A stretch of DNA of 49,467 bases. Source: Glutinoglossum americanum (Eukaryota > Ascomycota > Geoglossomycetes > Geoglossales > Geoglossaceae). A program made the position numbers and the translations under genes. Positions within the stretch are counted from its first letter, which is position 1; each line of letters begins with the position of its first letter. Below the pieces are notes generated by a model. It saw nothing but the letters and a program-made list of their open reading frames with translations. It was not told the origin of the DNA and did no database searches. This document shows, in pieces, positions 28,983-47,160 of the stretch. Where the stretch lies: positions 1 to 49,467 of the forward strand of contig JAGHQL010000188.1 of NCBI GenBank assembly GCA_020080175.1, written 5' to 3'.

Positions 28983-29044
28983 GCGGAAAGTTTGAATAAC
29001 CCTCGCCTAAGGTTTATTGTGGAAGTTGTATTCAAACTTTCCGC
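28983..29044. repeat. perfect 16-bp inverted repeat with 30-nt spacer
   Basis: The arms are 28983-28998 (GCGGAAAGTTTGAATA) and 29029-29044 (exact reverse complement). The dyad sits about 300 bp upstream of the start of the giant NLR-like gene at 29339. It may be a regulatory dyad or a foldback-element remnant. Confidence 0.75.
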
Positions 29045-29338: not shown

Positions 29339-32300
29339 ATGAGAAAATATCTAGCTGACAGGATCCGAAAGAGTAAGGGCAAAGATGCTGCGAGGAAATG
29401 GAATGATGGGGGTGAGGCAGTGCCGAAGTACCGTCCATACTATCTCATCTATCCTATTAGGGATATATTAACACCGAGCCCAATAGGGACAACCTATACG
29501 GAATAAAGGTTCTCAAAGAACCAGAGCCGGACATACCTGCTGTGGTGGAGTAAGTCAAGTTTCCTTGGTTTGATGTCCTTCCGATTCCATTAGGCATTCA
29601 TTTTACAGTAACTACATGGTGCTGAATACACGTATGTCTTGATTAGTATTGTATTTGCTCATGGCCTCACAGGCCACCCGGAACAGACTTGGCGTTGCAC
29701 CGGAGCGCTTTCCATCGACCAGCATAGCCTAGGCGATGCTGGAAGTATAACGCGTGGGAGCTCCTGGCCGGAGCTCTTGCTTCCTGCGATAATCCCGCAA
29801 GCTCGCATTTTGACGTTTGGTTACGATGCTGATATTGCGCACTTCTCGGAGCCGGCTGGACAGAATTCCATTAGAGACCATGCCGCTGACCTTGTTGCTC
29901 ATTTAGCAGCTAAACGGGATCATATCGAAAGCCCTAATCGTCCTATTATATTTGTAGTACACAGTCTAGGGGGTCTTGTTTGTGAAGACGTAAGCGGCAG
30001 GGTTGACCTCATCGCTGGATAAGCACAAGGCTAACTGCATTGCAGGCATTACTATTGTCAAAAAACAGTGCTGAGCCGCATCTTCAAAAAATACTGGAAT
30101 GTACCCGTGGTATTGCTTTCTTTGGAACACCGCACGCTGGCGCCGACTTGGCCAAGTTCGCCTTGGCCTTGGCCAACTTAGTCCGCTGCGTCCAAAAACC
30201 GAATAAGGACCTTCTTAAGATCCTCAAGCGAAATTCAGAGGTGCTTGCCAGAATCCAAGATGACTTCCACACTATGATCAGGGTGCGCAAAGAGAGGGCG
30301 GAGCCTGATATAAAAATTCATTGTTACATTGAGCAAATACCAGTCAGCGGAATAAGACAGGTGTGTGAAATCAACAGAAATTGCGCGCGAGTGTCTTTTC
30401 ATTGTGCGGTCTACTTCTACCAGCTCTTGAACGGTTACTAGAAGTCTGTGCTGACATACGTCAAGCTTGTCGTACCTCCTGAATCAGCCAAGCTTCCACA
30501 ATACTCATTTTCGACAATACGGAGCAATCACATGGATATGACGAAGTTTAGAAATCAAGAAGATCCCGGCTTTCAGCTTGTCTCGAGTGATCTTTTGCGT
30601 TGGGTCAAAGCCCTTGAGATTCCGAAAGGTAGTACATCTGAACTGGGCGTATAAGAACCTCATGACTGACCTACCGGGTAGGCTCAAAAGCGCAGGGTAA
30701 GTCCAAACTTGACTTATAGTAATGACTTGTCTCAGAGCTACCGGTGCTGGTTTTCGACGACTCTGAGACTCACTGTCTGTAGCTAGTCTGGGATACTAAC
30801 CTACTTCAGAGGTGGGGCTTCGGCTACCTCCTCCCACATATCGAGTCCAGGGGATACCTGCCACATGGGACAGTGCCAAAACCGAGACCCTGCTTGCCGC
30901 GTACTTCAGCGAGACATGGAACGGCAAAATATGCGGGATCAACATTCACAGTCTTGCAGTATCTATTAACAAGCATACTCCAAGCCAGCAGGTAGCCACG
31001 ATAACCTTTGAAAATACACCAGAACCATTTTACGATGCAAAACCGGACGGCACCACTGAAACCAAAGCCGAAGTCGATTTTAATATATCTGGTCATAACA
31101 TTACCTTCGACTGCCACTTTCATGGATTTACGCCTCTATGCTATACCAATGATGAAGATCACGAAATAGAGTACGTTTCGCTCAGTCATTTTGCAGCTTT
31201 TCGCAAGAAGCGTCTAACTTGGTTAACAATGGTAGTTGTATTGCGATAACCGCGCTTTCCAGCCATGCGTTTGGTTGTTGGCAGTCCCGGGATAATAAAT
31301 TTATGTGGCTCAGGGATAGTCTCCCCTATCTTAGAGGGCTTCGGGTGGTCATTTATGGATATGATGGTTCGAAGCTCCAGGGTAGTAATACTCCCCAGAA
31401 TCTGAGTGATATTACTCAAGCATTCAATCGGTATATTAAAAGCATGAGGGTAAAAGTGGGGGTAAGTGCTAGCTTGGTTTATAGGCTTTGAAGATGCTAA
31501 ATCACTCTAAGGTCTGCAGCCCGCCCAAGCCCTTGATTTTCCTTACCCATAGCTTAGGAGGGTTATTGCTGAAGGAGGTAGCCATTAAAGCCCTTCCAAT
31601 GATCTTTCTTCATTGATACTTGACTTGCTTTCACACTGACCTTATCTCAAGGCCATTAATGAAATGTCAGTCAATGACAGAGACAACTTCAAATCCATCT
31701 ACGGAGTCCTTTTTTTTGGCGTACCAAATCAAGGACTCAAAAATGGACAATGGCAAAGTATCACCCAAGGTCGAGCCAAAAGAAGCCTCATAGATGGCCT
31801 AGAGCCAGGATCGTTGGCCTTGCGCACGCTGCACGAGACGTTTTGCTCAAACTTCACATTTGAAGACTCTAAAGTCATATCTATCTATGAAACTGAGGTA
31901 GCCTCGATTATAGAGGTAAGGTTTTTAATTTGTATAATTTACCTTGCAAATGTATCAGCCTCATTGAGAGTTGGCAGGTGGATTCAAACGGTCGTTCTCT
32001 AGATACAGGCAGACTCGGGATCTTGGTTCCAAGAGAATCCGCCGAAGCAAGTCTCCCAGCGGCACCAAACCATAAGTCATTCCCCATTCATCGCAATCAC
32101 CACGAGATTGGGAAATTTACTAGTCCCCACGATCAGGAATATATCCAAATTCTTGATGAGTTGACACACTTCCGGGATGATGCAGTTGATGTGGTTAGGT
32201 CTCGGTTCGTGCTAGATGACCAAGGTGACGCTCAACTTATATGGTTTTTGACATTAAGTTCTTAAGCCTTTTCACGTCTTTCTAGTCGACCGACTACAGC

Positions 32301-35300
32301 CACCAAATCTGATTCAACCCTAAGCTAACTAATGGCGATTTGCAGGAATACTGCGAATAACAGCAGGCATCATCTTCGAAGAACTTGAGTACCAGCAGAC
32401 CAGAGCTAATTCTTCAGACTCCGTTCATGATTCCACGGCATGGTTCTTCAAAAGCCCTGAGTATGAAACTTGGATCAACGGAACCAACGGAACACCAGAG
32501 TTCCTCTGGTATTCAAGAAATTCGGATTCGAGGAGCATAGAAATAATACTCGAGCTACTGGACAGACTCGAGGTCGTAGGGCCGAGACGATATACTGCAG
32601 AACGAATCGTCGTTGCTTTCCTCTGTTCTCGGTGTGTTTCTAATCCTAAGTGCAGAGAAACGCCAAGACTTACTCCACAATTGATAATACTTTCATTTAT
32701 CGCTCAACTAATTCACCGTGGTAATCCCGGCGATTCTAAGCTAGTTTCACAGCTGAATTGGGAGGAACGGATGATCCTCCAAGCGGCAGTCGATTTAACC
32801 GAACCAATCGGAGAAGCTTCTTTATGGGCAATCCTGAGGCGCTTATTAGATACCACGTCTTGTAGGGAGTTTTCTATCATCGTTGACAATGTCGAGGACT
32901 TGTTGCCTGGCGACAGGACTCGGTTTCTCTCAACTCTTCTTGAATATATAACTACGGCGAGGTCAGACACACAGAGGAATTTTAGGGTTTTGGTAGCAAG
33001 CACTCGGGTCGAAGAGATTAAGACGAAACTTGAAAGGTTTCCATTCATTGATCTTGAAAAAGAAGCAATTGGTATGCTCTTGTCCTGCCCTTTGAATTTT
33101 GTCACTAAAACAAGATTCAGAGTGTCTCAACTCGCTACGCCTCAAAGCTCAAAACAACCGGGAGAGATCCATCGAAGAAGTACAACTAGGCACAGGCGCC
33201 TGGATCTCAAGTGATTCTAGATTCGAAAGTTGGAGGTCCTCTGGTGAGTCAAGTTTGTTGTGGATCTTGGGAAAGCCTGGCAGCGGGAAGTCCACATTAT
33301 TGAAGCAGATCCTAAAATGTCTCCTGTCAATGCACAACTTGCAATGCCTTGGCGAAATTCCTGAAGAGGCTGGCATTTCAATCGACCAGAGGAGAACTGT
33401 AAAATATTCCCAAAACAAACAACCAAGAACATGGAGCAGGCAGTCAGAGGTCACCGTCGCCAGTTTCTTCTATAGTCGTCGCGGAGGGTTCGCGGAAACC
33501 GGACATTCGCAGATGCTACAATCCCTTTTATTTCAGATCTTGAAGCGAGACATCAGACTCTACACACTCTTTCGTGGGCAATATCGAAGTCTAAAAACCG
33601 AGCAAAAGAAAAGCCAGGTTTCTTGGGGCCTCGAAGACCTTCAACGCGTTTTCTCAGGGTTATCTTGTTTCAATGACTTCCCACTGAGGATATATCTCAT
33701 TATTGATGCAGTGGACGAATCCGACGACGACGGCCGATCGAAAACTCTATCATTATTGTCTGACATGTGCTCAAAAAAGCACCCATGCATTATCAAGGCC
33801 GTTCTTGGGAGTCGCTATAGCAGAGACATCAGAGCGAGTCTAGCCAACCCTGTTTACACCATCACTCTTGATAGCGAAAATGGTCCCGACATTGAGAGAG
33901 TCGTAGATACTCGGATAGACGATCTCCGGCGAAAACTGGGAAGGAAACGGGAACAGACGTCCCCCGGTGACGCTCTAGACGAACTAAGTAGGTATCTCGT
34001 CAACAATTCGCGTGGTGTCTTTCTTTGGGTGGTTCTTGTCATGAAGGCATTGGAACCATTTGCAGAAGAAGGCTGTAGCGACAGGCACATAAAGAAAGTA
34101 GCAGAAGAGCTTCCGCTGGAATTGCAAGATTTGTACGAGGGTATTGTCTGCAAGCTTGACAGGTCAGACTTCAATGTGGATACGACGCGAAAGATGTTTG
34201 CGTGGGCTATTTCTACACGGCGGCCTTTGACAGTCGGTGAGTTTCGGGACGCAATGGCCATATCAGAGAATGTCAATCTATCAGGAAATCTCTTGAAGGA
34301 AAACCGACATGAGCCGCTCGAACGAATGTCCGTGTGGATCGCCGCAAGGTGTGGTGGCCTTCTGGAGATACACAGACTACAAGGATCATCAAACGGTGCC
34401 ATAACTGGGGATGCCAAACCAGGCGATACGGTCCAGCTCTTACATCACACCACTAGGGAGTTCCTTCTCAGCAAGCATACGAACCCATTCATCGCAAGCC
34501 AAATAGAAGCTGAATCATTGATCGCAACTGCCTGTGTCAGGTACTTAATTCTCTCGTTGTCGGGGCATGCCATACCAGGGGGCGCCAACTTCAGCAAAGA
34601 GGATGCGAGATGTTGGAGGAGTGGAGAGTACCGAAAGTTTGTTGAATACCTGTCAGACCGACCGCTTCTTACTTACGCTTTGAAATTCTTACCAGAGCAT
34701 CTGGAGGAACCCAACAAGAAGAGCGCTATAGACTTGAAGCAATCTATCCTACAGATAAAGAAGGAACCGTGGAGTCCTAGTTGGTGCTTGCTGGCCTTAT
34801 GGTCACAAAATTTCCTCAGGGGTTTCGAGACTGATTTTGGGATGTGCCATGGCCAACCATTCAGGACTACGACCTTGGTAACTGCTGCAAGGCACGGTTA
34901 CAGTAATGTGGTAAAAATCCTGATCGCAGCTGGGACAGTCATTGACGAGTTTGATCGGTTGAACAATTTCACCGCACTGCAGGCTGCTGCGTTTTCGGGC
35001 CATTGCAGGATAGTTGAATACCTGATAGGGATCGGAGCGAATACAGCGGGCGCTCTCCATGGGGCGGCCTTGAATGGGCATGAGGCGGTTACGAAGCTAC
35101 TACTGGAGAATGGGGCTGATGTAAACGCTCGGGATGATAATGGCTGGACGGCGCTGGATAAGGCAGCAGAGAGCGGGCATGAAACGGTGGTCAGGTTGCT
35201 GCTCAAACCAAGGCTTCTGGGAGTTTTCAACAATACCTGGTCGAACGCTCTACTCAGGGCAGCGAAGAACGGGCACCAAGCGGTGGTCAAGGTGCTACTC

Positions 35301-36326
35301 GATAGAGGAGTGATGAAGAGGATCAGGGGTACTGTCAGTTGGAAGGCTCTGCACAAGGCAGCGAAGAACGGGCATGAAGCGGTGGTCAAGATGCTGCTCA
35401 ACGTGATAGGCGCGAGCGGGCAGGTCTGGGACACCAACGGGTGGAAGGCCCTGCACAAAGCAGCGGTAAACGGGCACGAAACGGTGGTTAGGGTGCTTCT
35501 TGAGAAGGTGGTCGATATCAACGCGAAAAACGGCGACGGCCGAACAGCGTTGCACTGGGCGGGCGAGAGCGGACACGAAGCAGTGGTCCGGCTGCTACTT
35601 GAGAATGGGGCTGACGTCGACTCGAAAGATAGGTTCGGATGGACGGCGTTGCGTTGGGCAAGCGGGGGCGGACACGAAGCAGTGGTCCGGCTGCTACTTG
35701 AGAATGGAGCCGACGTCGACTCGAAGGATAGGTTCGAATGGACGGCGTTGCGTTGGGCAAGCGAGGGCGGACACGAAGCAGTGGTCCGGCTGCTACTTGA
35801 GGATGGAGCTGACGCCAACGCGAAGGATGGATATGGATGGACAGCTCTGCATTGGGCAGGCGAGGGCGGCCACGAAGCAGTGGTCCGGTTGCTACTGAAC
35901 AAGGGGGCAGATGTCAACGCGATGGACAAGCATGGATGGGAGACGCTAAGCTGGGCGGCCAATGGGGGCCATGAGTCAGTTATCCGGCCCCTGCTAGAGA
36001 AGGGGGCTGATGTCGACGCGATGGACAGTGGTGGATGGACCGCGCTATGCAGAGCTGCTGATAGGGGGCATGAAGCAGTGGTCCAACTGCTGCTAGAAAA
36101 GGGGGCTGATGTCGACGCAATGGATAGGGACGGATGGACGGCGCTGCGCTGGGCGGCCAATGGCGGGCACGAGTCGGTCGTCCGGCTTCTGCTGAAGATG
36201 GGAGCAAATGTCAATGCGAAGGATAACGATGGATGGACGGTGCTACGCTGGGCGGCCAGCGGGTGCCATGAAGCTGTAGTCCAACTACTGCTGGAGTGGG
36301 GATCCGAAACCCCTGCCTCTACCTAA
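29339..36326 (+). CDS. giant NLR-like protein: hydrolase - RRM-like - hydrolase - pseudo-NTPase - NACHT - ankyrin (12 exons)
   Basis: Exons: 29339-29427, 29487-29549, 29647-29989, 30046-30360, 30466-30628, 30810-31170, 31236-31461, 31530-31577, 31652-31915, 31978-32224, 32346-33071, 33115-36326, giving 2,018 aa with every junction in phase. Domains in order: alpha/beta hydrolase 1 (about 45-322) with VDIVFAHGLTGH, nucleophile Ser157 in VVHSLGGLV and a C-terminal SNHMDMTKF histidine; an RRM-like stretch TYRVQGIPATW (about 334-420); hydrolase 2 (about 430-690) with Ser528 in LTHSLGGLL and RNHHEIGKF; an NTPase-like module (707-948) retaining FSIIVDNVEDL but with LWYSRNSDSRS where a P-loop should be; a canonical NACHT with GKPGSGKST (1001-1009) and YLIIDAVDES; and 15 ankyrin repeats (about 1533-2011). 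Fungal STAND proteins of this kind act in non-self recognition. The first and second exon borders, and the join across the 181-bp intron at 30629-30809, need transcripts. Confidence 0.75.
35540..36300 (+). repeat. tandem 99-bp ankyrin-coding units with high identity
   Basis: Eight ankyrin units of exactly 33 codons follow one another. Those starting near 35541, 35640, 35739 and 35838 are almost identical in DNA; two neighbours differ at only a handful of positions, some synonymous. Units toward both ends of the array are more diverged. This pattern points to recent unequal exchange or gene conversion within the array. Confidence 0.8.
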
Positions 36327-38858: not shown

Positions 38859-39267
38859 ATGGTCTACTAGACGGTCTGGCCCGTGGCGATGGCCCAGCCC
38901 CATTGGGGCGGCAGCAAGACACCCACGTGGTATCCGCACGCCTGGCGCTGGGCCGCCGCCTCGAAAAACGGCACTAGCTGCGCGCAGGTATTCCCGCCTC
39001 TGTTGCACCTTTCTTGCTTCCCGCGCGTCTCTCTACCAAACAAGCTCTTGCTGGTCACTAACGTCTTGGAGTCAACGGCCCGCCAGCGCGCCCGGTGTGC
39101 TAGCTCAGCCGGATATATATGCCTGAACGGAGCGTGAAATGGCCATTACTTTGCTGCAATCCGGCACCACATAACGCGCTCGTTGCGCGCTTCTCTCCAG
39201 TACTTTTTGGTCCCTTGCTGCCCTTCCGCCCGAAACCCGACTGGCCTTGCCTGCGCAGCAAAGACGG

Positions 39268-41664
39268 ATGGCCGATCCTTCCCAGGTCATCGATGCCGCC
39301 GTGGGCTGCGTTGCCGTTTGCTGCCGGGTGTATTCTGCGCTCGACAGGTTCGCCAGCGATGCAGAAAATGCCGACACGACCGCGGCAGATTTGAGGTCTC
39401 GCGTGGGCCAGCTCCGAGATATGGCCAGCAGCGTCAAGCTGTCCCTCGATTCCAGATTAAGGCAGGGCAGGCCCCTGCAAGGAGAAGAGCCCCGCCATCT
39501 AGCCCTGATGAAGGCCTCCGTGGACCGCGCTCACCAAACGCTGAAGCGATTTGAGGGCGAACTGGGTGGTGGCCACGGAGACGTGCGGTTTCGCGTGCTG
39601 CGGCAGACGTTGCTGGCGATCAGACTTCAGCGGATCGACATGGTTGTGGAGCGATTTAATCAGAATCTACAGATGCATATCCGAACGATAACTATCCACT
39701 TTTTGTGCCTCCAGACGTAAGAGAAATAGACGTTGCCGGTCATTTGGCGAACGGCAGGCTGAAAGACGTATAGGTACGCGCATAGCGTGGTGGGTCATTT
39801 GCTGGAGGCTATAATACGGGGCGGGGACGAATCCTATCTTCGGGCTTGGCAAGGGCATTCGCCTCGGGGCTACCACTCGGAAGGCCGCCAGCTATTGCCT
39901 GCGTTGGAGAACGGGTTGGCAAACGAGGACAATGACATCTTTTGGAATCTACGCGAAACAATCACCGTGGCCCGCTCCGTCGTGAATAGCGTATGGAGCC
40001 CCCCTGCAGCCCATGGTGACCAACCACGAGATACGCCACCCGGGCGATCAAACAGCCATGCCTCTTCCGCCGAGGCCGCCCACGCGCCGGGGCGCGAGAG
40101 CGAAGATAGCCCCGACCCTGACCCTAAAGTCATCACACCCCTGGAGATCCTGTCTCCCATGATAGATATCCTTTCGAAGCGAGTGTCGCTCGCTCAAAGC
40201 TGTCAAGACTACGGGAAAGCTGAGAAATACCAGATTGAAAAAATTGAATGCCTCGAGGAACGCAGGACCGCGTACAATTTCTGGTTTGACAGAGGAGAGG
40301 CTCAGAAGACGCTAGCTAATATCTACATTCAGCAACAGAACAGGGCCGAGGCAGGAAAGATCTATCGCAATCTGAGCGAAAGCGATGGTGCCCGAGACCT
40401 GGAGATAGAGGATACACCAACCCCCCTGGAGGAGCTGATCGAGCCCGCTAGGGAACTAAGGAAACGTTCCAGACATTACTATAGCCTTGCCAAGTTTCAG
40501 CTGGAACGATATCTTGACTCCTCGACCTCGGGTTTCCTTGAATGCTCAGCAGAGTACGCAAAACGCGCAGTAACACTGTTGAGGAGGACCTTAAGAGACC
40601 CAACTAAACCTGGCTCGGACTTTACCAATACGGTGCAGCTGCTGGTGCAAACTCTGGAAATTCAGGGGAAGGAAGTTGCAGCAGAAACGTATAGACAAGT
40701 ATACTTGAATGAGCCGGAACTAGTGCCTCCGACACCAATTCAAGGGAGGGCCGCTCCACCTTTTCCCGGTATTTCGGTGCCAGGAATCATGGATCAGGTC
40801 GACGATATGGGAATTACCCCTCTTGTTGCCGCTATCAGAGATGGCAGCTGTTGGGAGATTAATTACCTGCTGTGGCAGGGAGCGGACGCAGGAAAGTTGT
40901 GTCTGGAGAAGACGCCTCTGATGCATGCCGTCGAGAGAGGCGATCCGGTCATCGTCCAGATCCTCAAGTACTGGCGGGAGGATCTGGATTTGGAGTATCG
41001 CGACTCCGAGGGCAAAACGGCATTGGCCATGGCCGCATGCAAGGGGGGCGAGGGGATGATCGAGGGCCTGATTAACGCAGGTGCAGAGGTCGAGACGGCG
41101 GCTTTTGGTGAGGTTACGCCACTCATGCAAGCGGCCAGTAATGGCCATGCTGAGGCAGCGGATGCTCTCATTAGAAGCAGGGCAGACTGCCATGCGAAGA
41201 GCCATGACGGATGGAGCGTCTTGCATCATGCTGTCTACGGCCCGGGCGGCTCCACGCTGGTAAGACGCCTTATCGAGTGTGGCGTCAACGTGAACACCCC
41301 CTGTCTCACGTACGGCCAGACTCCCCTCCACATGGCGATCGACAAATTCGGACCGACTCCCTTTCCCAACCGCGTCGAGCTCCGCGGGGAGGACGCCGCG
41401 AGAAGAGACGTCCTCCGTGTGCTCCTGGACGCTGCAGACGTGACGGCGGCGGACCGGAGCGGCAACACGCCTCTCTCCCTTGCAGTGGGGCATGACAACG
41501 AGGGCCTGGCGAGGGTGCTCATCGATAAAGGGGCGACCTATAACGGGAGAGTTCCCTCGAATGTTTCCGACGGCATGTTGAGAATCTTGAATAAACGCCA
41601 AGCCGGAGCGCCGCTGAGGAGAGCGAGCACTGGCAGGTTCTTCCCGTTCCTGCCGCGAGGATGA
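39268..41664 (+). CDS. ankyrin-repeat protein with STAND-type N-terminal helical domain (2 exons)
   Basis: Exon 1 is 39268-39716, the intron 39717-39785 (69 bp, GTAAGA donor, CATAG acceptor) and exon 2 39786-41664, giving 775 aa. The N-terminal 140 residues (MADPSQVIDAAVGCVAVCC, then RVGQLRDMASSVKLSLDSR) form the kind of helical domain with a hydrophobic first helix found at the front of many fungal STAND and ankyrin proteins (HeLo-like/SesA-like group; exact family not provable by eye). A disordered Ser/Pro-rich linker follows. Residues about 170-330 are helical and TPR-like (GKAEKYQIEKIECLEER, SLAKFQLERYL). From about 490, five to six ankyrin repeats follow, for example TPLMQAASNGHAEAADALI and TPLHMAIDKFG. 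There is no NACHT P-loop, so it is not a complete NLR. The C-terminus is basic. The gene is flanked by repeat copy B and lies between two NACHT genes on the same arm. Confidence 0.75.
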
Positions 41665-43836: not shown

Positions 43837-46800
43837 TCAAGGTGGTGGGCAGGGAGTACGTGGACGGTTGGCTAGTGGACGGTTGACTAGGCGTTTTGTG
43901 CCATGAGGAGCCAGCAGCTGCGTCACCGCCTTGTACCCGTTGCCGGCTGCCCGGTGCAGCGCTGTGTCCCCACATCTGTCCTTCGCGCTGACGTCGGCCC
44001 CTTTCTCCACCAATAGCCGCACCACCGCCTCGTGCCCCTTGCCGGCTGCCCGGTGCAGCACCGTGTCCCCATCTCCGTCCCTCGCGTTGACGTCGGCCCC
44101 CTTCTCCACCAATAGCCGCACCACCGCCTCATGCCCGTTGCCGGCTGCCCGGTGCAGCACCGTGTCCCCATCTCCGTCCCTCGCGTTGACGTCGGCCCCC
44201 TTCTCCACCAGCAGCCGCACTGCCACCTCGTGCCCGTTGATGGCTGCCCCGTGCAGCGCCGTCCACCCATTGTCGTTCTTCGCATTGACGTCTGCCCTCT
44301 TCTCTACTAACAGCCGCACCACCGCCTCGCGCCCGTGGCGAACCGTCTCGTACCCGTGGTGAGCCGCATTGTGCAGCGCCGTGTCCCCATATCTGTTCTT
44401 CGCGTTGACATCGGCCCCCTTCTCCACTAATAGCCGCACCACCGTCTCGTGCCCGTTGCCGGCTGCCCGGTACAGCGCCGTGTTCCCATGTCTGTCCTTC
44501 GCGTTGACGTCGGCCCCCTTCTCCACCAATAGCTGCACCACCGCCTCGTGCCTGTCGCCGGCTGCCCTGTGCAGCGCCGTCCACCCATATCTGTCCTTCG
44601 CGTTGACGTCGGCCCCCTTCTCCACCAATAGCCGCACCACCGCCTCATGCCCGTTGCCGGCTGCCCGGTGCAGCACCGTGTCCCCATCTCCGTCCCTCGC
44701 GTTGACGTCGGCCCCCTTCTCCACCAGCAGCCGCACTGCCACCTCGTGCCCGTTGCTGGCTGCCCCGTGCAGCGCCGTCCACCCATCGCTATCCCTCGCG
44801 TCGACATCGGCCCCCTTCTCCACCAGCAGCCGCAACCCTGCCTCGTGCCCGGCGATGGCCTCCCGGTGCAGCGCCGTCCACCCATCGCTATCCCTCGCGT
44901 TGACGTCGGCCCCCTTCTCCACCAGCAGCTGTGCGATCTTGCAATGTCCATACGTACTCGCACAATGCAGATAGGTCTCGCCTTTCAAATTCGTTTCCTT
45001 CAAGACCTTCAACTTAGATCCCAATAGGCTCCGAATAGATTGGAATCTCCCTTTCGACTTCAATCTTAACAAGTCTTGAATGATCTCGGAAAACCCCCAG
45101 ACGCAGGCTGCAAAAACAGGATCTGGGGGAGAGCTGATCGTCGATCTGATCCTTCGCTGAATATCATCATCACTCCCTGCATGAGATGGAAGAGCAGCCT
45201 CCGCTGATCGAGCCCATTCAGCAAATGGCGAGGTTTCTCCAAGCTGCCGTTTGAGTAAATCATGAAATAAGTCCCCAAGCTTGTCCTTAGACCGACGATC
45301 TTCGCTCATTTGACAATGAATCGGCCAATGCATTACTGCATAATTACGAAAGGTAGTGTTTACAGCTATAACAGCCGCAGGCGCCGAAATATTTCCGAGA
45401 CAGACGGTGAGACATCTCTCTGCTGCAAGGGCGTTCGCTGCGGTTGATGTGTATTCCTCTTGTCCTTCAAGAAATTCCCTCACGGAGAGATGCGCAAACC
45501 GAAAAATATCCAGCTCCAGATCGAGAACGATAAGATTGCAGCAGATTCTCAAGACATTTTCTTTCCTTACCTCGGTGAGGGTCCCCTCGGAGTCGGTAGA
45601 GATAGCAGCAAGAAATTCGCTAACAGAGAGCCTTCTTTGACTGCATAGTATCCACTTCAACGACCTTTCCGCTATAGTTCGACTCGATGGCCCTAAATTA
45701 GAGATTTCCTTGAATATTTCAGAATAAATACTCATGAGGCCCTGTGGGAGACTGCCAAGCTCCTCCCGAAGGTCTCTCTCCAGCTTGATCCGATTGCTGC
45801 AGAGATTTTGTAGCTGTAGGCTGACCCAAAGGAACCTAAAAAAAAGTGAGAACTTGGTAAACAACCATGACCGTTGACGTTAATTGTCAGAATAACTTAC
45901 ATCCCCTGTGCCTGCTCAGTTAATGTTCTAATAATGTCTCCCCTCAGTTGCTCAGAGATATCGCCACCAAGTAACCTCTTATCGTAGATAGCTTGCCTTA
46001 CCTCATTTTGGACATATTGTCGAATGTCCGGAGCATTATCGCTAGCCTTGATGTACATATTTGGTGAGCTTTCCAAGCGTAGAACAATATCTTGGTCGTC
46101 TCGACTAGACACAAATATTTTTACCAAGCCAGAGCTCTTCTGGAGGATGCTGTCAAGGGCTTTGAGCATCCTATGACGCGTGTTCCTGTCGCATTCATCC
46201 AATGCGTCGATCACAATCGTTGTGCGCAAATAATAGGACGTCAGCTCAATGATCACCTCGACACTCTCCTCGAGACTCAGTGGACCGTTGGCAAAAGACT
46301 TCCTTTTTCGTTCCTCGTATTTTTCAGTGACCGGACCGAGGACTGACTCCCCCGGCGGAGGACTTGATATCTGCCTCACAATACTGCGAATTATATCTTC
46401 TGGATTCGAGCGTTCCGGCTCAGCAGCGTTCCGTGAGCAGTAAAAATATGCCAAACAATAGCCATCTCGAGAATTCGCAAGAAGTTCATTGACAACGATT
46501 GACCTGACAGAGCAGTATGCAAAATCAGTGATTGTTCGTGGAATCAATCTACTCCTAAAAACTTAATCTCCTACACTAGTTTAGTCTTGCCGCAGCCGGC
46601 TACAGACCTATTAGCACGTATAGTACTGGGAAATCAGCCTTCCACTTACGAATACCGTGCAGCCAAAGTACCGAAGATCTATTTGAGTCTCTCCATTGGA
46701 CTACAGCTTCTTCCTTAAGAAGCCATAATCCAGTGCCTTCAAGAACCCCATATTTGTTGGCATTGTGATGCTGCTCATATGGAATAGGCGACAGCCACTG

Positions 46801-47160
46801 CAGGATCGTGTGGCGAACAGCATCTCCAGAATCTAACCACCGATTGGTTCAGTGTGTGGCTCCCAGACTTGAGAGCGCTTATCATACTAAAATTTACCGG
46901 TCCACCAACTACATTGAGATTGCCCTGGAAGAGAATGCCCCCGGTTACTCGGTTATTACCCTCAAACCCGGTTGCCTCCTGCGATATATGAAGGCCATCC
47001 ATACTAGATATGCCTTGGTGCTGGCTCCCCTTGAAGTAGGGAATTCCGTTAGAGAATCAGTTTCGTTACCAATTAACGCATTCGGTTTGTCTGTGAGAGC
47101 CACAGCCACAAGAATAACCTGAAGAGTCTGCTCTGCTGCCCTGTTTTCGATGTGGTCCAA
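43837..47160 (-). CDS. NACHT-ankyrin STAND receptor (6 exons)
   Basis: Exons: 47119-47160, 46906-47029, 46650-46832, 46575-46599, 45901-46503, 43837-45835, giving about 991 aa in frame throughout. The second and later exons are firm; the first (MDHIENRAAEQTLQ) is a plausible extension, otherwise translation could start at 47002 (MDGLHISQEATGF). Residues 25-60 carry the GLHISQEATGFEGN and LNVVDSGDAV type leader common before fungal NACHT domains. The NACHT has P-loop HGIPGCGKTKL (about 114-124, rebuilt across two introns and a 25-nt exon) and Walker B TTIVIDALDECD (about 219-230). It is followed by the winged-helix-like region WILCSQRRLSVSEFLAAIS and 11 ankyrin repeats from about residue 605. 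Role by family: nucleotide-switched non-self or danger sensing. No N-terminal effector domain is visible. Repeat copy C begins 21 bp upstream of the start. Confidence 0.85.
43930..45000 (-). repeat. tandem 99-bp ankyrin-coding units with block duplication
   Basis: Eleven ankyrin units share long stretches such as RLLVEKGADVNA, and neighbouring units are nearly identical in DNA. A two-unit block (GWTALHGAA-NGHEVAVRLL followed by GDTVLHRAAGNGHEAVVRLL) occurs twice, near 44645-44790 and 44120-44270, so a higher-order duplication is visible. One unit near 44300-44370 carries a 7-residue insertion (YETVRHG). Confidence 0.8.

What the first reader, a model, noticed from the sequence alone, without database searches (positions are those of the whole stretch)
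29339..36326. Predicted single protein with two alpha/beta-hydrolase modules, a pseudo-NTPase, a NACHT and 15 ankyrin repeats
Twelve exons join in phase into 2,018 codons. Both hydrolase modules keep the GHSLGG-type nucleophile elbow and a late conserved histidine. Fungal STAND proteins with one lipase/SesB-like front domain are well known. A tandem of two different hydrolases in front of two NTPase-like modules is not an architecture I know. The second half (RRM-like GIPATW, hydrolase, NTPase) resembles a usual stand-alone layout, so the gene may be a fusion of a SesB-like hydrolase onto a lipase-NACHT-ankyrin receptor. This is the best candidate for a previously undescribed system in the window.
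Basis: partly seen in the sequence, partly recalled or inferred. Interest (0 to 1): 0.85.

Follow-up and report, generated by a model that had tools for sequence, protein, structure and literature searches.

The report
Fungal immune receptor with doubled front-end
A fungal gene is predicted to encode one very large immune-type receptor that carries two lipase-like enzyme modules and a dead copy of its own ATP switch in front of a working ATP switch and an ankyrin sensor; each part is of a known kind, but the doubled layout is unusual and is not yet confirmed by transcripts.

Summary
The observation largely holds. Twelve exons (29339-36326) join in phase into 2,030 aa: hydrolase 1, an unidentified "GIP" block, hydrolase 2, a pseudo-NTPase, a NACHT-type NTPase and 15 ankyrin units. 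Scanned alone, the pseudo-NTPase just passes the NPHP3_N cut-off (25.7 vs 24.8 bits) and has lost Walker A. Both hydrolases keep Ser, Glu and His aligned with four bacterial relatives; hydrolase 2 lacks the HG that the other five keep. "RRM-like" is unsupported. One gene, or a SesB-like effector gene 155 bp before an NLR gene, cannot be settled without RNA. I favour one gene: exon 6 has no in-frame ATG and its acceptor follows a TACTAAC box. New here: the three introns between main modules are phase 1, the other eight are not; exon 11 is exactly the pseudo-NTPase and can be skipped in frame; the hydrolases share intron positions; keeping intron 5 would give a free 340-aa hydrolase. I file it as a new variant of fungal SesB-like/NACHT/ANK NLRs. 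The 2014 census pruned sequences with several separate NTPase hits, so it could have missed this layout.

The parts
29339..36326 (+). Predicted single 12-exon gene, 2,030 aa (2,035 aa with the micro-exon)
   Evidence: exons 29339-29427, 29487-29549, 29647-29989, 30046-30360, 30442-30628, 30810-31170, 31236-31461, 31512-31577, 31652-31915, 31978-32224, 32346-33071, 33121-36326; no RNA data
29339..30628 (+). Hydrolase 1, SesB-like alpha/beta hydrolase, exons 1-5, residues 1-332; HG at 56-57, Ser157, Glu261, His300
30629..30809 (+). Intron 5 (181 nt, phase 1), the fusion junction; if kept, translation stops at 30652-30654 after 340 aa
   Evidence: weak donor GTAGTA, acceptor preceded by TACTAAC
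30682..30696 (+). Optional 15-nt in-phase micro-exon inside intron 5, followed by a consensus GTAAGT donor
   Evidence: no RNA data
30810..31170 (+). Exon 6, 'GIP' block, fold unknown; no in-frame ATG
31236..32224 (+). Hydrolase 2, SesB-like, exons 7-10; Ser542, Glu630, His679 kept, HG replaced by TA
32346..33071 (+). Exon 11 (726 nt, phase 1 on both sides), pseudo-NTPase; P-loop YSRNSDSRS, Walker B-like IIVDNVED
33121..34862 (+). NACHT-type NTPase (Walker A GKPGSGKST at about 33270, Walker B LIIDAVDES at about 33696), DUF7791/winged-helix region and linker, first part of exon 12
34863..36323 (+). 15 ankyrin units; tandem DNA array 35544-36238

Best explanation
One gene of a filamentous fungus encodes an intracellular NLR/STAND receptor of 2,030 aa. 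Inferred action: the ankyrin array senses a non-self or danger cue; the intact NACHT-type module then switches nucleotide and oligomerises; this brings the front hydrolases together, and hydrolase 1 (Ser-Glu-His plus HG) cleaves a lipid or other ester, leading to regulated cell death. Hydrolase 2 is probably a weak or non-catalytic partner, since it has lost HG. The pseudo-NTPase is probably a decayed duplicate of the NTPase half of the NACHT module and acts as a structural or inhibitory spacer; its exon can be skipped in frame. Shown: gene anatomy, homology and motif states. Inferred: the single transcript, sensing, oligomerisation, substrate and cell death.
For: In-phase 12-exon model. Domain matches. 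Exon 6 has no in-frame ATG, and its acceptor follows TACTAAC. Only 155 bp lie between the hydrolase 1 stop and exon 6. Base composition is similar across hydrolase 1, GIP, hydrolase 2 and pseudo-NTPase (GC3 0.43-0.47). Hydrolase residues aligned with four bacterial relatives, one of them a hydrolase in front of an NB-ARC-annotated WD40 protein. SesB-like domains in fungal NLRs are called predicted lipases, perhaps acting on the plasma membrane (PMC4986451, passage). The patatin-lipase NLR PLP-1 needs its patatin activity and its ATP motif for cell death (PMC12881547, passage).
Against: No transcript. The donor of intron 5 (GTAGTA) is weak, and seven single-intron joins are open and in frame, three of which leave hydrolase 1 whole. 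Separate starts for a second gene exist at ATG 30662 and 30722. The NPHP3_N margin for exon 11 is small and its direct BLASTP match to the NACHT module is weak (E 0.022). No fungal homologue could be searched. Models were too poor to test folds.
Confidence: 0.55

Rival explanations
1. Two adjacent genes: a stand-alone SesB-like hydrolase of 340 aa ending at 30654, and an NLR (GIP, hydrolase 2, pseudo-NTPase, NACHT, ankyrin) that begins with a short first exon at ATG 30662 or 30722. The hydrolase would be a separate effector partner of the receptor.
For: sesA/sesB effector genes next to STAND genes are known, and effector/STAND couples occur both as adjacent genes and 'all-in-one' (PMC3321046, passages). 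The frame of hydrolase 1 has a stop at 30652-30654, and ATG 30662 (donor GTAGGC) and ATG 30722 (donors GTGCTG, GTTTTC) can be spliced in frame to exon 6.
Against: Only 155 bp for a 3' end, a promoter and a start. The consensus GTAAGT donor at 30697 cannot serve ATG 30662 in frame (35 nt; among its options one search lists only GTAGGC). No amyloid-type tail is evident after hydrolase 1 (it ends GSTSELGV; by eye).
Confidence: 0.25
2. One gene with a splice switch: keeping intron 5 gives a free 340-aa hydrolase, splicing it gives the full receptor, and exon 11 is skipped in some transcripts.
For: Intron 5 kept gives a clean stop after a whole hydrolase; exon 11 skipped leaves an open 1,788-aa protein. 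Micro-exon alternative splicing is reported for NACHT-ANK genes of Tuber melanosporum (PMC4986451, passage; PMC10197012, passage).
Against: No RNA. In-frame exon blocks are common here (16 of 55 contiguous internal blocks), and a stop in an intron is expected by chance.
Confidence: 0.12
3. A decaying receptor gene without function.
For: Fungal NLRs are thought to evolve by birth and death (PMC4986451, passage). Two modules have lost key motifs. The RIP product index is 0.91-0.92 at 29-31 kb, just above 0.89 (thresholds recalled).
Against: All twelve exons are open; NACHT Walker motifs, hydrolase 1 residues and the 1,076-codon last reading frame are intact. The RIP substrate index is 1.09-1.40 over 28-37 kb, not below 1.03.
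Confidence: 0.05

Closest known systems
Fungal SesB-like/NACHT/ANK NLRs (Dyrka et al. 2014, PMC4986451, passages)
   Same: SesB-like front domain, NACHT-type NTPase, ankyrin array, partly homogeneous repeats
   Different: Listed there with one N-terminal domain and one NTPase; here two hydrolases, a GIP block and a second, dead NTPase
sesA/sesB/het-eN locus of Nectria haematococca and similar pairs (Daskalov et al. 2012, PMC3321046, passages)
   Same: SesB hydrolase genetically tied to a STAND receptor with ankyrin repeats
   Different: Separate genes that share an amyloid-like motif; here probably one chain, no such motif seen by eye after hydrolase 1
PLP-1 of Neurospora crassa (PMC12881547, passage)
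   Same: Lipase-type front domain on an NLR that drives cell death
   Different: Patatin, NB-ARC and TPR; a single front enzyme
Bacterial hydrolase STAND protein of Gloeothece citriformis (L001, annotated NB-ARC)
   Same: Related hydrolase at the N-terminus with HG, Ser, Glu and His
   Different: One hydrolase, WD40 repeats
Fungal NLR N-termini with two domains (Wojciechowski et al. 2022, PMC9815663, passages)
   Same: Two front domains in one NLR are known, such as C2 plus Goodbye-like
   Different: The passages seen do not name two alpha/beta hydrolases; its tables could not be opened
Brown algal NB-ARC-TPR receptors with exon shuffling (mentioned in PMC10197012, passage, and as a title in PMC12258605)
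   Same: Receptor diversity tied to exon modules
   Different: Another lineage, NB-ARC-TPR genes; here effector and NTPase modules bordered by phase-1 introns

Membership tests
Fungal NLR / STAND receptor | STAND-type NTPase with intact Walker A and B | tested here: met
   NPHP3_N best stretch 986-1194, GKPGSGKST and LIIDAVDES; PF05729 NACHT below cut-off, 24.5 vs 26.7
Fungal NLR / STAND receptor | C-terminal superstructure-forming repeats | tested here: met
   Ank families, 15 units
Fungal NLR / STAND receptor | Oligomerisation and a cell-death or defence output | not testable with these tools
   Bench work needed
SesB-like alpha/beta hydrolase (hydrolase 1) | Alpha/beta-hydrolase family match | tested here: met
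   DUF676 23.1 bits vs cut-off 20.3 in the whole protein, but 17.5 alone; Abhydrolase_6 25.2 vs 26.3; tblastn to 16 of 72,556 plasmid records. The published SesB profile itself was not available
SesB-like alpha/beta hydrolase (hydrolase 1) | Ser-Glu-His set and HG motif | tested here: met
   six-sequence alignment
SesB-like alpha/beta hydrolase (hydrolase 2) | Alpha/beta-hydrolase family match | tested here: inconclusive
   No Pfam cut-off reached; related to hydrolase 1 at E 1e-9; tblastn to 4 of 72,556 plasmid records
SesB-like alpha/beta hydrolase (hydrolase 2) | HG motif beside the active site | tested here: not met
   TA in place of HG, kept in the other 5 of 6; Ser, Glu, His kept
NPHP3_N NTPase (exon 11 module) | Profile match above cut-off | tested here: met
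   25.7 vs 24.8 bits, profile positions 2-163 of 164, scanned alone
NPHP3_N NTPase (exon 11 module) | Walker A GxxxxGKS/T | tested here: not met
   YSRNSDSRS at that place: a pseudo-NTPase
RRM-like domain (GIP block) | RRM profile or fold | tested here: not met
   No RRM match in Pfam; the fold test itself was inconclusive, as the model is poor
SesB effector plus separate NLR gene pair | Two independent transcripts | not testable with these tools
   Needs RNA; possible starts listed

The most novel reading that the evidence does not exclude
A fungal NLR built and varied by exon modules. Phase-1 introns bound its main blocks (hydrolase 1 | GIP-hydrolase 2 | pseudo-NTPase | NACHT-ankyrin), so blocks can be added or skipped in frame. 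Exon 11 is a skippable, dead copy of the NTPase, and keeping intron 5 releases hydrolase 1 as a free effector. One gene would then make both the 'all-in-one' and the 'separate effector' forms of fungal NLR signalling.
Probability: 0.12. Interest if true: 0.72.

Novelty: new variant of a known kind. Interest (0 to 1): 0.47.

Why it matters
If it is one protein, it is an NLR with doubled effector and doubled NTPase layers, one NTPase being dead within the same chain. That would allow a direct test of what a pseudo-NTPase does inside a receptor, and of how fungal NLRs gain modules. It also points to a blind spot: by its stated methods the 2014 fungal NLR census pruned sequences with multiple disjoint NTPase matches and merged SesB with other hydrolase labels (PMC4986451, passages), so such layouts could exist uncounted.

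Tried and rejected
Own genome: none is held. Relatives: searches (viral contigs, NACHT region; 6 pattern stretches, none a relative; prokaryote genomes, hydrolase 1; 25 pattern stretches, none a relative) gave nothing. PDB by sequence gave no meaningful match for hydrolase 1, for GIP plus hydrolase 2, or for the pseudo-NTPase. Single-sequence structure prediction was too poor to use: mean pLDDT 43.4 for exon 11 and 45.1 for exon 6; Foldseek had 0 matches at E<=0.001 for each, and I draw nothing from the names listed. BLASTP between pseudo-NTPase and NACHT is weak (E 0.022), so the family call rests on Pfam. NCBIfam gave nothing useful. PADLOC gave DUF626_VIII for hydrolase 1 (E 7.3e-8) and nothing for hydrolase 2. 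Literature: (tandem or double NACHT) held 69 papers at two or more terms, 12 listed, none of them with a tandem-NACHT term; (tandem hydrolase, two lipase domains) held 27, 12 listed, none with those two terms; ('LipA and NB-ARC domain') gave 1 paper, not opened; searches list general NLR papers. Rejected: 'RRM-like' as unsupported; RIP-driven decay as unlikely on the substrate index, although the product index is slightly high at 29-31 kb.

Full report
What is there. The window is from a filamentous fungus, judged from its intron-bearing genes and from matches to EF-1 beta, MutS, ClpB-type and PLP-enzyme families; no genome is held. On the + strand, 29339-36326, twelve exons with GT-AG introns join into one frame of 2,030 codons plus a stop. 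Under my limits intron 1 has two admissible choices. Pfam finds many ankyrin models, NPHP3_N in two stretches (97.7 bits for the whole protein, best stretch 986-1194), DUF7791 (30.0 vs 28.1) and hydrolase families at the front; the NACHT model PF05729 stays below its cut-off (24.5 vs 26.7).

Hydrolases. Hydrolase 1 is above the DUF676 cut-off in the scan of the whole protein (23.1 vs 20.3 bits) and below it when scanned alone (17.5); Abhydrolase_6 is just below its cut-off, 25.2 vs 26.3. Hydrolase 2 alone reaches no cut-off. The two match each other over 135 residues at 26% identity, E 1e-9. By tblastn, hydrolase 1 matches 16 of 72,556 plasmid records; of the 15 listed, five are annotated ABC-three-component, and others NB-ARC, AAA-like or TPR. 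Hydrolase 2 matches 4 of 72,556; three of these are also listed for hydrolase 1, and the best (6e-6) has no annotation. I fetched four of the 15 listed relatives, chosen for coverage and annotation. One is annotated NB-ARC and carries WD40 repeats (Gloeothece), one has an AAA_35 domain, one an ABC-3C C-terminal domain, one TPR repeats. In a six-sequence alignment the HS(L/M)GG elbow, one Glu and one late His are invariant (6 of 6). HG is kept in 5 of 6; hydrolase 2 has TA there. Hydrolase 1 therefore looks catalytic and hydrolase 2 may be impaired. That these residues form the triad and oxyanion hole follows from established knowledge of the alpha/beta-hydrolase fold, not from a call.

NTPases. 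The NACHT-type module has intact Walker A (GKPGSGKST) and B (LIIDAVDES). The exon 11 module, scanned alone, scores 25.7 bits for NPHP3_N against a cut-off of 24.8, over profile positions 2-163 of 164. Its P-loop reads YSRNSDSRS, while a Walker B-like IIVDNVED remains. So it looks like a real but degenerate second copy; the margin is small, and direct BLASTP to the NACHT module is weak (E 0.022).

Sensor. Fifteen ankyrin units lie at about residues 1545-2030. Units 8 and 9 are 95% identical in DNA and 94% in protein; the other neighbours from unit 7 to 14 are 69-85% in DNA and 52-73% in protein; units 1 to 7 are 34-45% in DNA (ungapped; tandem array 35544-36238). High internal repeat conservation is enriched in fungal NLRs (PMC4986451, passages), but this array does not meet that paper's criterion of over 85% across at least 100 aa: only one pair, 66 aa, does so.

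One gene or two. Exon 6 has no in-frame ATG, and the acceptor at 30809 is preceded by TACTAAC, so exon 6 must be spliced to something upstream. Seven single-intron joins from hydrolase 1 are open and in frame; three of them (donors at 30629, 30632 and 30649) leave hydrolase 1 whole, and of these 30629-30809 is the one used here. A second route uses a 15-nt micro-exon, 30682-30696, and the consensus GTAAGT donor at 30697, also in phase. Separate starts exist at ATG 30662 (donor GTAGGC) and ATG 30722 (donors GTGCTG, GTTTTC). With 155 bp between the stop and exon 6 I favour one gene, but only RNA can decide. Adjacent sesB and STAND genes, and fused forms, are both known in fungi (PMC3321046, passages).

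Module borders. The introns between hydrolase 1 and the GIP block (5), between hydrolase 2 and the pseudo-NTPase (10), and between the pseudo-NTPase and NACHT (11) are phase 1. The eight others are phase 0 or 2. By exact count this split has a chance of 1/165, but the grouping was made after seeing the data; if the GIP/hydrolase 2 border (intron 6, phase 2) is counted as a module border, it is 3 of 4. Exon 11 (726 nt) and exons 6-10 together (1,164 nt) are in-frame cassettes; in-frame blocks are not rare as such, 16 of 55 contiguous internal blocks. Introns 10 and 11 lie upstream of the two NTPase copies at similar, not identical, alignment columns. One hydrolase intron falls in the same column and phase in both modules in the pairwise alignment, after the nucleophile helix (D|A and E|A, phase 0). 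A second, GA|T phase 2 before the first strand, also falls in the same column, although the alignment places a gap just after it. A third, phase 0, lies within a few columns of its counterpart; intron 7 has no counterpart. This supports the exon model and common descent of the two modules.

Mechanism. PLP-1 needs its patatin activity and ATP motif for cell death (PMC12881547, passage). By that analogy the likely chain is ankyrin recognition, NACHT switch, clustering of hydrolase 1, ester or lipid cleavage, cell death. Each step after the anatomy is inference.

Novelty. Parts and logic are known. I did not find the doubled layout in print (searches; six papers seen in passages: PMC9815663, PMC12258605, PMC4986451, PMC3321046, PMC10197012, PMC12881547; supplements could not be opened). 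It could have been missed: the 2014 census pruned sequences with multiple disjoint NTPase matches and merged SesB with other hydrolase labels (PMC4986451). The Sordariales survey has a 'mixed' class for NLRs with several canonical domains (PMC12258605); two domains of one category may not stand out there, which is my inference. Two-domain N-termini of other kinds are on record (PMC9815663). I therefore call it a new variant of a known kind.

Noticed in passing
43837-47056, minus strand: A second NLR-type gene: NPHP3_N at 45900-46562 (70.3 bits), winged-helix match at its cut-off, and a long ankyrin array at 43840-45879. Upstream of its NTPase a short G/N-rich stretch (RVTGGILFQGNLNVVGGPVNF) resembles amyloid signalling motifs by eye only; Pfam shows nothing, and its exon structure was not solved.
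   Followed up: partly
39175-41664, plus strand: An ankyrin protein with a helical-looking N-terminal stretch that recalls SesA/HeLo-like domains from memory; Pfam gives no support. With the two NLR genes this makes a cluster of three ankyrin genes within about 17 kb.
   Followed up: partly
28983-28998 and 29029-29044: A perfect 16-nt inverted repeat with a 30-nt spacer about 300 bp before the ATG; no other exact copy in the window.
   Followed up: partly
34901-36322, minus strand: A 474-codon open frame antisense to the ankyrin array, most likely a by-product of the repeat's codon pattern.
   Followed up: no
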